A stretch of 6,818 bases of DNA, taken from the NCBI GenBank assembly GCA_002790315.1, contig PFUW01000016.1, positions 14,793-21,610 of the forward strand, in the 5' to 3' direction. The DNA is from Huberarchaeum crystalense [NCBI: Candidatus Huberarchaeum crystalense]. Its GTDB lineage: Archaea; Huberarchaeota; Huberarchaeia; Huberarchaeales. The notes under the pieces are model-generated. The model worked only from the letters and a program-made list of their open reading frames with translations. It did not search any database and was not told where the DNA came from. Below, in pieces: positions 857 through 6,700 of the stretch; within the stretch, counting starts at the first letter, position 1; each line of letters begins with the position of its first letter. A program made the position numbers and the translations under genes.

Positions 857-1069
857 ATGGCTGTTGAACTAAGTATAACGCAAATAGGACTGATTATTTT
901 AACAATACTTGGGGGCATATTAATACTTTATTATGTTGGGTCTTGGTTTGCGACCATTATTTCTGGAGAAAAACTTATTGAAGTATTTTTGCTCTTTATT
1001 GATGGGTTTGTTCAACTCGGACAAAAACTAGGGGGCCTTGTTGGGTGGATAGGTCAGGTTTTTAAATAA
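857..1069 (+). CDS. Small membrane protein, 70 residues, function unknown
   Basis: I do not recognise this family. Residues about 8-35 form one strongly hydrophobic helix (ITQIGLIILTILGGILILYY) long enough to cross the membrane. Residues about 40-69 form a second, less hydrophobic segment rich in Gly, Leu, Val and Phe (FLLFIDGFVQLGQKLGGLVG). That part is probably amphipathic or a second membrane helix, and the protein ends in Lys. There is no Cys and no catalytic motif. The start ATG is followed by GCT, and an AT-rich TATA candidate lies upstream. It sits 84 nt after the RPA-like gene and 84 nt before another small membrane protein, so it probably has its own transcript. A coding role is supported by an uninterrupted frame and coherent hydrophobic design, but cannot be proved without homologues. 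Confidence 0.65.
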   Translation: MAVELSITQIGLIILTILGGILILYYVGSWFATIISGEKLIEVFLLFIDGFVQLGQKLGGLVGWIGQVFK

Positions 1070-3512: not shown

Positions 3513-6200
3513 TTATAATCCTTCTGTGCTGCAAGGTGTTCCTATTATTGCTTGTTGTTGCTTCACTTCATCTACTTTAACAACAACATAATTTTGCGAC
3601 GCCAAGTTTTGTGACTGGTTCATAACTTTAAAGATTTTTTTCTTACACTCATCAAACCCCCCACTACAAGGATTAATAGTTACATCTAACCCTGCGCAAT
3701 AACCTTCTTCCTCTCCACCACCTTCTTCCTCTCCACCACCTTCTTCACAATATTTACCCCCTATATCGCATTCAATTGCTGTAGAAGGATTATTCACAAA
3801 TGGCGCGCTAATAGAAATAGTGCCTGAACCTGTTAAATTTGAAAATGCTGTATTAGCATTAGAATAACTAATACTTCCTGCTTGTGGATTTTCTAAATTG
3901 CCTGTATCCCATCTTTTAAAAGTCACGGTTTGACAAGACACACTATCTACACAATCTACTTTTGCAAGTGTAGGGGGTTCTATAGTAGAAACACTATAAG
4001 TAAAATTATATTTTTCTTTTGCACTCTTTTCTGTTTCTTTATTAGCAGTACACAAATATTTTTGTTCAATCCTTCCAGGCAGACCCTTTTCATCTCCTGC
4101 AATATAAGTTTTAATTGCAGTATAATTTTCAAAATGATTGCTGCTTACATCATCTCCTGCTAAAACACAAGTATAACACTTTTGGTTATCCCCAATACCT
4201 TCACAATCCCACTTTATAATTATTGTTGTTGTTAGATCTGTAAATATTTCAACCCCTGCTGTATCCTTATTATAAAGAACAAATACTTTTTTGTCAACAG
4301 TTCCATCTTTTACTTCTTCTTTTTTGTTTATCGCAATTTTCTTTACAACAAGTTCATCTTCATTTGTTTCTTTACAGTTAATTTCAACATACGGCCGGCC
4401 TGTACCTGTTTTACCAGATCCTGTTCCACCATAAAGTTTTAATAGTTTTCTAACTATACCCCCATCTGTTGTATAGTCGCAGTAAAAATCACCATCTTTT
4501 TTTTTAATATTTAGTAATTTAGCTCTATCTTCAAATTTAACATCTTTACCAGTTTGTTTTATTAAATTGCAGGAAACAGATAATTTACAATAATCTGATT
4601 CTGGGTTTTTTATACAATCTGCTAAGTTAATTTCAGTTGTGTTTATGCAGTTCCCACCAAATAATTCATTTGTTTCTATATTAACGCAGTCCATACCTTC
4701 TTCTTCAGTATTAAGAACCCCTTTGCAAGCGTATTTTTTTTCAGATAGTTCTACCTGTGCTATATAATCATCACTACAATAACAATTAATATTATATGCC
4801 ATTGGATCTAAAAGCATGCTTACATACTTTTTACAGTCTTCATCTTTTCCAATAGCCGAATCTAAGTTTTTTTCAAAGTTTTGCTCAATAAAAACATTTT
4901 GGTGCGCCATATAAGCAGAATATCCTGCTGCGCAAGCATCATGCGTTATTGCCTTTTTCGGAGGTTCGCATCCTGAAACTGCACTTACTATTGTATTAAA
5001 TATATCAAAATCTGATTGAAATTTTACTATGTCTGCTTGTAATTTTTCTCCTGATACTTCTACATTACACGAATGAAAAGATAAATTTACAACAGTTCCA
5101 CAATCATATGCTGCGTATTTGTAAAGCTCACTTCCTACACCCATTCGCACAACCCCTCCTGCTCCATATCCTGGTAAAAGGACTTTTCTTAATTTATAAG
5201 GATGAAGGTCTTTTCCTGTAAGTAAAACCCCCTCGTGCTTAAATATACCTGCCTCTCTAAATCCTCTGTCTTCAATCCTAAAAAGCAATTCTTTTTTTCC
5301 TCCTTTTACAGTATAACCATTTATTGCCTTTCCATAAAGACCTTTGCCGAGCAAAGCATCTCCTCTTAATTGTATACCTAATGCTTCCATCCCTTTTACA
5401 AATGTTGTGGGTTTGTTTAAGTTATAAACCACCTCTCTACCTCCTCCGCCCTCAATTTTAAGTTCCCCCCCTTGTTTAAAATACTGTAATCCTTTTGCTT
5501 CTGCTTTTGCTATGTTTGATTTTAATCCAGATATAATATATTTATTTATAATTATTTCATTTATTAGTTTTTGTGTTGCTGGAACCTTTCCAACAGCAGA
5601 AGTAGCCCCACCTTTGATGAATTTAGGAGTTAATTTTCCTATAACAGCAGATCCTCCGCGCGCAACAACACTCGCTGATTTTGTAATAACACTTATATGT
5701 AATATCTTCCCTATAAATTTTGCTCCAACGATTACTGGCTTAGCAACCCAACTAATAGGAACAAACCACATAGCAAGACTAATACCAACCATTGCAGGAT
5801 CACAAGTCCAACTACCATCTTCAATTTTGCCAAGCATAATTGTTGCTGAATCAGAGGAAATGGGCGCGCAATAATCACCCCGAGGAAGCTTGTCTTGGTA
5901 AAATATCGCGCAAACTGACGTTGTTCCATCATCTTTACTCATTCCAATATACACCTCACTTACTGTGTTTGGAAAATTGTATTGCTTATTCTGGGGTGGA
6001 AGCCCTGCAGCATAACTACTGTGATGAAAACTACTGATGTCTGCTGCTAAATTATCTATTTTTTGAACAGCCACTATACCTTTCCAAAATATTAAAAAAT
6101 TTGGCAGTACAACAATAATAAGAAACAATGCCAACATAAATAATACTAATTTAAAAATACCTTCTATTGAAAAATCTAACCCTCCTTTCTTGTTTAGCAT
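3513..6200 (-). CDS. Large membrane-anchored cysteine-rich surface protein, family unknown
   Basis: I do not recognise this 895-residue protein. The N-terminus (MLNKKGG) is basic and followed by one hydrophobic helix at about 15-38, so it is a signal anchor with the remainder probably outside. The KKG before the helix loosely resembles a prepilin-type cleavage site. Residues about 136-230 contain a second hydrophobic stretch (MWFVPISWVAKPVIVGAKFI) and a Lys/Gly-rich part. Residues 230-360 are Gly-rich. From Cys367 to the end there are 27 of the 30 cysteines, often in CxC, CxxC or closely spaced form, suggesting disulfides. Six N-x-S/T sequons fit an extracellular protein. An acidic GGGEEE linker (819-833) separates a final 62-residue segment with several more cysteines. 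GGTGSGKT at 591-598 mimics a Walker A loop, but no ATPase fold surrounds it. The ATG at 6200 is preceded in frame by TAA six codons upstream, fixing the start. Possible roles are cell-surface contact or S-layer-like functions, but this is inference only. Confidence 0.85.
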   Translation of the reverse strand: MLNKKGGLDFSIEGIFKLVLFMLALFLIIVVLPNFLIFWKGIVAVQKIDNLAADISSFHHSSYAAGLPPQNKQYNFPNTVSEVYIGMSKDDGTTSVCAIFYQDKLPRGDYCAPISSDSATIMLGKIEDGSWTCDPAMVGISLAMWFVPISWVAKPVIVGAKFIGKILHISVITKSASVVARGGSAVIGKLTPKFIKGGATSAVGKVPATQKLINEIIINKYIISGLKSNIAKAEAKGLQYFKQGGELKIEGGGGREVVYNLNKPTTFVKGMEALGIQLRGDALLGKGLYGKAINGYTVKGGKKELLFRIEDRGFREAGIFKHEGVLLTGKDLHPYKLRKVLLPGYGAGGVVRMGVGSELYKYAAYDCGTVVNLSFHSCNVEVSGEKLQADIVKFQSDFDIFNTIVSAVSGCEPPKKAITHDACAAGYSAYMAHQNVFIEQNFEKNLDSAIGKDEDCKKYVSMLLDPMAYNINCYCSDDYIAQVELSEKKYACKGVLNTEEEGMDCVNIETNELFGGNCINTTEINLADCIKNPESDYCKLSVSCNLIKQTGKDVKFEDRAKLLNIKKKDGDFYCDYTTDGGIVRKLLKLYGGTGSGKTGTGRPYVEINCKETNEDELVVKKIAINKKEEVKDGTVDKKVFVLYNKDTAGVEIFTDLTTTIIIKWDCEGIGDNQKCYTCVLAGDDVSSNHFENYTAIKTYIAGDEKGLPGRIEQKYLCTANKETEKSAKEKYNFTYSVSTIEPPTLAKVDCVDSVSCQTVTFKRWDTGNLENPQAGSISYSNANTAFSNLTGSGTISISAPFVNNPSTAIECDIGGKYCEEGGGEEEGGGEEEGYCAGLDVTINPCSGGFDECKKKIFKVMNQSQNLASQNYVVVKVDEVKQQQAIIGTPCSTEGL
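3703..3746 (-). repeat. 18-bp in-frame tandem repeat encoding an acidic Gly/Glu linker
   Basis: The unit CCTTCTTCCTCTCCACCA (plus strand) occurs exactly twice, at 3703-3720 and 3721-3738, with a third partial copy of 8 bases at 3739-3746. On the coding minus strand this gives Glu-Glu-Gly-Gly-Gly-Glu units, residues about 819-833 of the large surface protein. The period is a multiple of three, so copy-number change would keep the frame and only alter linker length. Confidence 0.85.
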
Positions 6201-6233
6201 ATATTGTTTAGTATATTAAACTCCTCATAATGC

Positions 6234-6249
6234 TTTATTATAAAATATT
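6234..6249. promoter_or_regulatory. Shared divergent TATA region between the surface protein and coiled-coil genes
   Basis: TTTATTATAAAATATT is nearly symmetrical and gives a TATA-like box on both strands (minus strand: AATATTTTATAATAAA). It is centred near 6241, about 25 nt before the plus-strand ATG at 6266, which fits a leaderless mRNA. It is about 41 nt before the minus-strand ATG at 6200, which would give a leader of about 15 nt. A minus-strand GAGGAG at 6226-6221 ends 20 nt before that ATG, too far for a normal ribosome-binding site. A second TATA-like TTTAATATA (6220-6212, minus) is too close to the start to serve it. Confidence 0.45.
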
Positions 6250-6265
6250 GTTTTACAAATATTTT

Positions 6266-6700
6266 ATGGGGTTTGATTTGTTCAAAAAAGAAGAAAAAAA
6301 AGAAGACGAAAATATTGCTTTATTTAGCAGACAAATTTCTGATGTGTCGCGGCGTTTGATGCTCTTAGAATCGCGCATAAAAGCCATAAGCGACAAGCAA
6401 AACGAATTAAGCAAAACTATATTTGAGCAAACTAATTCGCTTGAAAAACAGCTCGCTGTCTTAACTGAACAAGCAAAATCAAATAGATCAAAAACAAATA
6501 TACTTGAGCAAAAACAAAATTATTTAGAAAAGTATCTTCATATTTTAGCGCCAAAAACTGATATGATGGTGCTGCGCGCAAAAATAAATCTACTCAATCC
6601 AATGTATTTAATAAGCAAAGAAGAAATTAAAATGATGATAAATGAAAAGATAGCAAACCAAGAGAAAATAGACGCACATCAGCAAACAAAGAGCGAATAG
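6266..6700 (+). CDS. Coiled-coil protein, 144 residues, function unknown
   Basis: I cannot assign a function. The protein begins MGFDLFKKEEKKEDE, a short hydrophobic start followed by a charged stretch. It then shows a long coiled coil: hydrophobic or Gln residues fall at heptad a/d positions from Ile24 through Val27, Leu31, Leu34, Ile38, Ile41, Gln45, Leu48, Ile52, Gln55, Leu59, Gln62 and Leu66, and the helix probably runs on to about residue 94. After Pro96 a short segment with several Met and Leu (DMMVLRAKINLLNPMYLI) is followed by a charged helix. There is no membrane helix, no Cys and no signal peptide, so it is likely cytosolic and oligomeric. I chose the ATG at 6266 over the in-frame ATG at 6230 because the upstream codons cover the TATA-like sequence and read as Tyr/Phe-rich filler (MLYYKILFYKYF). 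It is divergent from the large surface protein, with a 65-nt gap, so co-regulation is possible. Confidence 0.75.
   Translation: MGFDLFKKEEKKEDENIALFSRQISDVSRRLMLLESRIKAISDKQNELSKTIFEQTNSLEKQLAVLTEQAKSNRSKTNILEQKQNYLEKYLHILAPKTDMMVLRAKINLLNPMYLISKEEIKMMINEKIANQEKIDAHQQTKSE

What the first reader, a model, noticed from the sequence alone, without database searches (positions are those of the whole stretch)
3513..6200. Unassigned 895-residue cysteine-rich surface protein
One N-terminal anchor, 27 cysteines after residue 366, six sequons and an acidic linker before a small terminal cysteine module describe a large extracellular, disulfide-stabilised protein that fits no family I recognise. If the organism is a DPANN archaeon living on a host, such proteins are candidates for cell-cell contact. 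It takes up about 40% of the window, a heavy investment for a presumably small genome.
Basis: partly seen in the sequence, partly recalled or inferred. Interest (0 to 1): 0.6.

Follow-up and report, generated by a model that had tools for sequence, protein, structure and literature searches.

The report
Giant pilin-like protein of symbiotic archaeon
A tiny archaeon thought to live on other archaea makes a very large, cysteine-rich surface protein with no known relatives; its front end and its gene neighbour suggest it belongs to the hair-like pilus machinery that such symbionts may use to touch their hosts.

Summary
The 895-residue gene is real. It lies on the minus strand (6200 to 3513); the window matches Candidatus Huberarchaeum crystalense, putative episymbiont of Altiarchaeum, whose public contig carries the same gene. 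One strong N-terminal anchor, 27 cysteines after residue 366 and an acidic linker are confirmed. The six sequons are chance level (5.7 expected). No family, solved structure or homologue was found, and AlphaFold failed (pLDDT 29).

New evidence gives it a likely context. There it sits beside the type IV pilus ATPase: in 30 of 40 fetched loci, 22 divergent within 400 bp; control gene 0 of 29. The Huberarchaeum genome holds prepilin peptidase, pilus ATPase, platform protein and five other proteins with an LNKKG-like start before a helix. In the related loci, 8 of 10 KG-anchored proteins are cysteine-rich, reaching 613 residues.

Best reading: an unusually large class III (pilin-like) component of a T4P-like machine, probably for host contact. 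Probst et al. 2018 already proposed Cys-rich surface proteins of this species for contact. Assembly into a pilus and host binding are not shown.

The parts
3513..6200 (-). 895-aa cysteine-rich, N-anchored protein P0001 (stop codon 3513-3515)
   Evidence: ORF, translation; 926-aa version in L001
6183..6197 (-). LNKKG motif (residues 2-6), candidate class III (prepilin peptidase) signal: charged -2, G at -1, before the hydrophobic helix
   Evidence: motif [LM]N.[KR][GA] in 6 of 445 proteins of G001, all six with an N-terminal hydrophobic helix; criteria from passages of PMC4371748
6105..6161 (-). single strong transmembrane helix (residues 14-32); AlphaFold draws helix 12-56, confident only for about 11-36
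5796..6086 (-). residues 39-135, post-helix region with 3 Cys
5511..5792 (-). residues 137-230, moderately hydrophobic then strongly basic stretch (160-230: 11 K/R, 1 D/E), no Cys
5103..5510 (-). residues 231-366, Cys-free region; the L001 allele carries 31 extra residues here
5454..5459 (-). place of the 93-bp (31-codon) indel against L001, around codons 248/249
3747..5102 (-). residues 367-818, cysteine-rich region, 23 Cys, 5 sequons
3699..3746 (-). residues 819-834, acidic Gly/Glu linker (two of the six substitutions against L001 are here)
3516..3698 (-). residues 835-895, small C-terminal module with 4 Cys
6230..6700 (+). divergent neighbour: coiled-coil protein linked to T4P loci in related genomes (likely start 6266, 144 aa)
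   Evidence: matches in 45 of 393 other genomes, beside the T4P ATPase, control, alignment
6201..6229 (.). intergenic stretch between the two divergent start codons (to 6265 if the neighbour starts at 6266)

Best explanation
P0001 is a very large, cysteine-rich, class III (prepilin-like) protein of the T4P-like machine of Ca. Huberarchaeum crystalense. Proposed working: Sec inserts the N-terminal helix; the A24 peptidase may cut after KKG (G6); the helix stays in the membrane or is drawn by the TadA/FlaI-type ATPase and the TadC-type platform into or onto a short filament; the roughly 860-residue outer part, held by disulfides, is displayed and makes contact with the host (Altiarchaeum). The divergently encoded coiled-coil protein belongs to the same machine. 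Shown: gene, anchor, Cys pattern, presence of the machinery genes in the species' representative genome, the neighbour's link to T4P loci elsewhere. Inferred: peptidase cleavage, outside location, disulfides, assembly into the machine, host contact.
For: (1) The N-terminus meets the archaeal criteria in passages of PMC4371748 (G/A/S at -1, charged -2, site before the H-domain). A similar [LM]N.[KR][GA] start occurs in 6 of 445 G001 proteins, all with an N-terminal hydrophobic helix (Fisher 1e-4, motif chosen after looking); three of them lie with a fourth anchored protein on L061. (2) G001 has an A24 peptidase over Pfam cut-off next to a T2SSE ATPase over cut-off (best NCBIfam models FlaI and TadA, below their cut-offs) and a T2SSF platform over cut-off. 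(3) The divergent neighbour is tied to T4P loci: ATPase in 30 of 40 fetched loci, divergent within 400 bp in 22 of 40; within 1.5 kb in 8 of 11 loci against 0 of 29 for the control gene DHS (Fisher 2e-6). (4) In those 40 loci [KR]G-anchored single-TM proteins tend to be Cys-rich: n=10, median 4.1% Cys against 0.42% in 480 other ORFs; one, L135:575-2416, is 613 aa with 24 Cys and no sequon, downstream of ATPase and TadC. P0001: 3.35% Cys, sequons at chance.
Against: No sequence similarity of P0001 to those KG-anchored proteins or to the other LNKKG-like proteins of G001, nor to any pilin family. +1 is G, which is outside the strict FlaFind set as I recall it; the acidic residues are at +3 and +7, not +5. 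P0001 is not in an operon with the machinery: in G001 the ATPase and platform are on other contigs, and the rest of the window is housekeeping genes. About 860 residues after the helix is far above ordinary pilins (recalled). AlphaFold gave no pilin fold. The coiled-coil matches are only 16-23% identical in the 17 aligned, and coiled-coil composition can flatter E-values; it is their position that supports them. Ten of 40 fetched loci show no ATPase in the fetched stretch, three of these with the 5' side at a contig end. The ten KG-anchored proteins come from only six loci and two have no Cys. The genomes behind these loci are unnamed; that they are DPANN is inferred from small size.
Confidence: 0.5

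Rival explanations
1. A generic membrane-anchored surface protein (uncleaved signal anchor) for adhesion or envelope structure, unrelated to the pilus machine; the coiled-coil neighbour is there by genome rearrangement.
For: Probst et al. 2018 propose large Cys-rich surface proteins for host contact in this species; G001 has several large Cys-rich proteins (L025, L048, L053, L033, L071, L085); ATPase and platform lie on other contigs; no similarity to pilins.
Against: Those large proteins are mostly sequon-enriched and P0001 is not; LNKKG-like start shared with five other N-anchored proteins; neighbour tied to T4P loci elsewhere.
Confidence: 0.33
2. A membrane-active effector: the hydrophobic, basic stretch 137-230 inserts into the host membrane, in line with the haemolysin idea of Probst et al.
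For: Residues 160-230 carry 11 K/R and 1 D/E after a hydrophobic stretch, with hydrophobic moments up to 0.46 in windows starting at 149 and 179; no Cys from 134 to 366.
Against: No pore-former family match; the stretch is not a clear TM helix (crude dG positive); the AlphaFold model there is worthless (pLDDT about 22-30). The calcium-binding protein of Probst et al. is not identified as this one.
Confidence: 0.1
3. Cytosolic protein, e.g. a metal-binding or redox protein using its 27 Cys.
For: The basic middle region would suit the inside face if 140-158 were a TM helix; no recognised disulfide oxidase.
Against: Only one strong TM helix behind a short basic N-terminus, so the rest should be outside; the Cys are scattered, with a single CxxC at 675/678.
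Confidence: 0.07

Closest known systems
Archaeal class III signal-peptide proteins / minor pilins and large tip adhesins of T4P loci (Makarova et al. 2016, PMC4858521, passages)
   Same: KG before the N-terminal hydrophobic helix; those passages describe large secreted or class III components, and conserved cysteines, for some archaeal T4P loci; machinery genes present in the species' genome
   Different: No sequence similarity; no DUF2341/PilY-type domain found; gene not in the machinery operon; about 860 residues after the helix
DPANN cluster 2 T4P loci with coiled-coil proteins (Hamm et al. 2024, PMC11291902, section 8 read)
   Same: A coiled-coil gene at loci with pilus ATPase and TadC; the window's neighbour behaves so in other genomes. 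That it is the same coiled-coil family is my inference
   Different: Huberarchaeota are not in the list of lineages in that section; in H. crystalense the place of the ATPase opposite the coiled-coil gene is taken by P0001
Cys-rich surface proteins of Ca. H. crystalense (Probst et al. 2018, PMC6792436, part 2 of the Results read)
   Same: Same species, large, Cys-rich, membrane-anchored, proposed for host contact
   Different: The text read names no gene; the calcium-binding protein it mentions may be another one, e.g. the MopE/DUF11 protein L048 (my guess)

Membership tests
Archaeal class III signal-peptide (prepilin-like) proteins | G/A/S at -1 and charged residue at -2, before the hydrophobic domain | tested here: met
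   K5-G6 before helix 14-32; criteria from passages of PMC4371748
Archaeal class III signal-peptide (prepilin-like) proteins | Strict FlaFind pattern at +1/+2 | tested here: inconclusive
   +1 G, +2 L; G is outside the set as I recall it; the program itself was not run
Archaeal class III signal-peptide (prepilin-like) proteins | Cleavage by a prepilin peptidase | not testable with these tools
   peptidase gene present in G001 (PF01478); cleavage needs experiment
Archaeal class III signal-peptide (prepilin-like) proteins | Sequence match to a pilin family | tested here: not met
   no pilin family in the Pfam, NCBIfam or PHROGs scans
T4P-like machine in the organism | Prepilin peptidase, assembly ATPase, platform protein | tested here: met
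   each over its Pfam cut-off, in G001 (same species; the window's own genome is not held)
T4P-like machine in the organism | Gene linked to a T4P locus | tested here: inconclusive
   linked only through the divergent coiled-coil gene; ATPase and platform on other contigs
PilY/DUF2341-type tip adhesins | DUF2341 or another known adhesin domain | tested here: not met
   no such Pfam match to the whole protein or to seven pieces of the L001 version
Sequon-rich surface proteins of the same genome | Sequon enrichment | tested here: not met
   6 observed, 5.7 expected

The most novel reading that the evidence does not exclude
Huberarchaeum, and DPANN more widely, build disulfide-armoured T4P-like contact organelles from unusually large, cysteine-rich, rapidly changing class III proteins; P0001 is the largest such subunit seen here, a host-contact spike whose gene has taken the place of the ATPase opposite the coiled-coil gene.
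Probability: 0.25. Interest if true: 0.78.

Novelty: new variant of a known kind. Interest (0 to 1): 0.52.

Why it matters
How DPANN symbionts seize their hosts is open. This names one candidate gene in the Huberarchaeum-Altiarchaeum pair, ties it through its neighbour to a pilus-type locus found in many related genomes, and suggests that the KG-anchored proteins of such loci tend to be cysteine-rich. It makes concrete, testable predictions (class III processing, co-localisation with pili at contact sites) where the earlier text spoke of Cys-rich surface proteins in general.

Tried and rejected
Sequence families: Pfam, NCBIfam and PHROGs on the whole protein, and Pfam and PHROGs on pieces, gave nothing over cut-off; PDB by sequence nothing up to E 10. 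The Roc hit (E 0.024, residues 589-658) covers the GGTGSGKTGTG stretch and is below cut-off.

Homologues: none in viral contigs; in genome contigs only L001, same species (single-sequence queries reach close relatives only). Whole genomes: 5 of 197 at E<=0.1 (one is G001 itself; I read the other four and judged them chance: two lie on the strand opposite a long gene-like frame, one inside a HAD-phosphatase-like frame, one in a frame broken by a stop); 1 of 156 at E<=0.01 (a 54-residue frame with a stop, matching only residues 10-56 over the TM helix; judged from its row); 1 of 394 with the L001 version at E<=0.001 (itself). The 156 and 394 overlap in part.

Paralogues: no convincing similar protein in G001 (best other blastp E 1.2). 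Similarity of residues 34-135 to the other LNKKG-like or anchored Cys-rich proteins: not above background (best of them rank 30 of 404). Internal duplication within residues 240-350 of the L001 version: P 0.054, chosen by eye, not claimed; three other internal comparisons gave nothing.

Structure: AlphaFold of P0001 with two near-identical rows failed, mean pLDDT 28.8; residues 225-397 of the L001 version reached 49, and Foldseek against PDB gave no match better than E 0.99. A resemblance by eye of residues around 275-310 to the GxGxY motif of PARP-like ADP-ribosyltransferases (recalled) found no support in Pfam at E 10 and was dropped.

Similarity of the 70-aa window ORF (857-1069) to four small TM proteins of G001: not above shuffles.

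Full report
WHAT IS THERE. The finding is an 895-codon ORF on the minus strand, 6200 to 3513. The finding gave no strand, and read forward its coordinates hold 48 stops. All counted features are right: 30 Cys of which 27 from residue 367 on, six N-X-S/T sequons, one strong N-terminal transmembrane helix at 14-32, and an acidic linker 819-834 followed by a 61-residue module with four Cys. Two points need correction. The sequons are what composition predicts, 6 against 5.7. Ten other long or secreted-looking proteins of the same genome run from z 1.2 to 19.4 in the same test; three anchored Cys-rich proteins (L076, L010 twice) are as neutral as P0001 and three more are between 0.9 and 2.0. The hydrophobic stretch 140-158 is borderline and is followed by a strongly basic region (160-230: 11 K/R, 1 D/E).

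WHOSE IT IS. A scan of genome contigs returned one relative, PFSX01000029.1 of Ca. Huberarchaeum crystalense (L001). Over the shared stretch (about 6.79 kb) the window differs from L001 by 7 substitutions. Six fall in this gene, which is 39% of the window (binomial P about 0.017, worked by hand): five change the protein, one is silent, and there is a 93-bp in-frame indel at codons 248/249. The gene therefore looks like the variable part of the window, though one pair of assemblies is thin evidence. The L001 version is 926 aa. The window's own genome is not held.

NO RELATIVES. Pfam, NCBIfam and PHROGs give nothing over cut-off, PDB by sequence nothing, viral contigs nothing. In whole genomes, 1 of 394 (itself) at E<=0.001 with the L001 version. 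Weaker hits at looser cut-offs were judged chance, four of the five after reading them. No convincing paralogue in G001. AlphaFold with two rows failed (mean pLDDT 28.8); only the N-terminal helix is confident. Residues 225-397 of the L001 version reach pLDDT 49 with an alpha-beta pattern over the first 80 residues and no PDB match better than E 0.99.

THE GENOME AROUND IT. I read the genome in which L001 lies (G001, 74 contigs, 499,820 bases) with crude ORF calling (556 ORFs). It holds the core of a T4P-like machine: an A24 prepilin peptidase (L015:122-970, PF01478 E 2e-9), a T2SSE ATPase 0.5 kb downstream (L015:1479-3851, PF00437 E 6e-16; nearest NCBIfam models FlaI 6e-33 and TadA 5e-31, below their cut-offs) and a T2SSF platform (in L084:2082-4751, 30.2 bits against cut-off 25.2). 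Downstream of the platform gene are two N-anchored CxxC proteins: one, with WCQHC, matches thioredoxin PF00085 over cut-off; the other matches only a glutaredoxin-like NCBIfam model below its cut-off. VKOR, Thioredoxin_4 and DsbD_TM were not found at E<=1, so the oxidase that would form disulfides is unidentified.

THE N-TERMINUS. P0001 begins MLNKKGGLDFSIEGIFKLVLF. Archaeal prepilins need G/A/S at -1 and a charge at -2, before the hydrophobic domain (PMC4371748, passages); K5-G6 fits. The motif [LM]N.[KR][GA] in the first 30 residues occurs in 6 of 445 proteins (60 aa or longer, not open at the 5' end), and all six are among the 100 with an N-terminal hydrophobic helix (Fisher 1e-4; the motif was chosen after looking). 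Three of the six lie together with a fourth anchored protein on L061, and two near each other on contig C3.

THE NEIGHBOUR. The divergent gene at 6230-6700 (29 bp between the start codons, or 65 if it starts at 6266) encodes a coiled-coil protein. It has matches at E<=0.001 in 45 of 393 other genomes (46 of 394 with G001). The 17 aligned are only 16-23% identical to it but share a C-terminal pattern (A2). In 40 of those 45 loci I sought the Huberarchaeum ATPase: it lies in the fetched stretch in 30 of 40, and divergent within 400 bp in 22 of 40; in three of the ten misses the 5' side is at a contig end (gaps measured between crude ORF ends). Control: within 1.5 kb flanks the ATPase is found beside the coiled-coil match in 8 of 11 loci and beside deoxyhypusine synthase (another window gene) in 0 of 29 (Fisher 2e-6). 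The neighbour is thus tied to T4P loci, and is probably the coiled-coil kind that Hamm et al. 2024 describe at DPANN T4P loci (PMC11291902 section 8; that it is the same family is my inference). Huberarchaeota are not in the list of lineages in that section. A second protein of these loci, often next to the coiled-coil gene, also has a Huberarchaeum homologue (L058:2475-3371, profile E 1e-22). In H. crystalense P0001 occupies the place opposite the coiled-coil gene that the ATPase holds in most of those loci.

ARCHITECTURAL RELATIVES. In the 40 loci, ORFs of 100 aa or more with [KR]G in the first 25 residues, a hydrophobic helix after it and no further hydrophobic stretch number 10, from six loci. 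Their median Cys content is 4.1% against 0.42% for 480 other ORFs (Mann-Whitney 2e-4; not independent, rule set after looking; two have no Cys). The largest, L135:575-2416, has 613 aa, 24 Cys and no sequon and lies downstream of ATPase and platform. P0001 (3.35% Cys, sequons at chance) fits this class in form but shares no detectable sequence with it.

READING. Most likely P0001 is a very large class III, pilin-like component of a T4P-like machine, displayed outside and disulfide-held, serving host contact (confidence 0.5 for the machine link; about 0.85, my estimate, that it is on the outer face). The main rival is a generic anchored surface protein (0.33). Probst et al. 2018 already proposed that large Cys-rich surface proteins mediate contact in this species (PMC6792436, part 2 of the Results read), so the general idea is not new. 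In the held library, no paper held all of DPANN, cysteine-rich, surface protein and symbiont, and three held Huberarch with type IV pil; of those three I read section 8 and passages of one (PMC11291902) and only the listing of the others. The two papers I recall as most relevant (Schwank 2019, Esser 2023) are not held under the identifiers I tried, so I cannot say that the link is unpublished.

Noticed in passing
window 857-1069 (+): 70-aa single-helix protein with an amphipathic-looking tail; a 76-aa protein of similar make-up lies between prepilin peptidase and pilus ATPase (L015:1132-1362), but similarity is not above shuffles.
   Followed up: partly
L015:122-3851: Prepilin peptidase, small TM protein and T2SSE ATPase in a row: a T4P-like operon in Ca. 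Huberarchaeum crystalense.
   Followed up: yes
L084:738-4751: T2SSF platform protein followed on the same strand by two N-anchored CxxC proteins, one a clear thioredoxin match, hinting at disulfide handling tied to the pilus machine.
   Followed up: partly
L061:3231-6385: Four consecutive N-anchored, Cys-containing proteins, three with LNKKG/LNHRG/MNKKG starts: a likely minor-pilin-like cassette.
   Followed up: partly
L025:979-9783: 2934-aa protein with 93 Cys and 195 sequons (72 expected), the longest ORF found in G001.
   Followed up: no
L048:1-6894: Protein of at least 2297 aa with 174 Cys, MopE metal-binding motifs and a DUF11 domain; perhaps the calcium-binding Cys-rich protein of Probst et al. 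(guess).
   Followed up: no
L105:2019-7895, L113:11406-15194, L116:2051-5836, L134: Pilus ATPase ORFs of 1261-1958 aa instead of about 760 in four of the fetched loci: large inserts, perhaps inteins.
   Followed up: no
L039:6355-8115: 586-aa protein with a signal-like start, a weak glutaredoxin/thioredoxin-like domain and about ten TM stretches that recalls CcdA/DsbD by eye, though DsbD_TM was not found in G001.
   Followed up: partly
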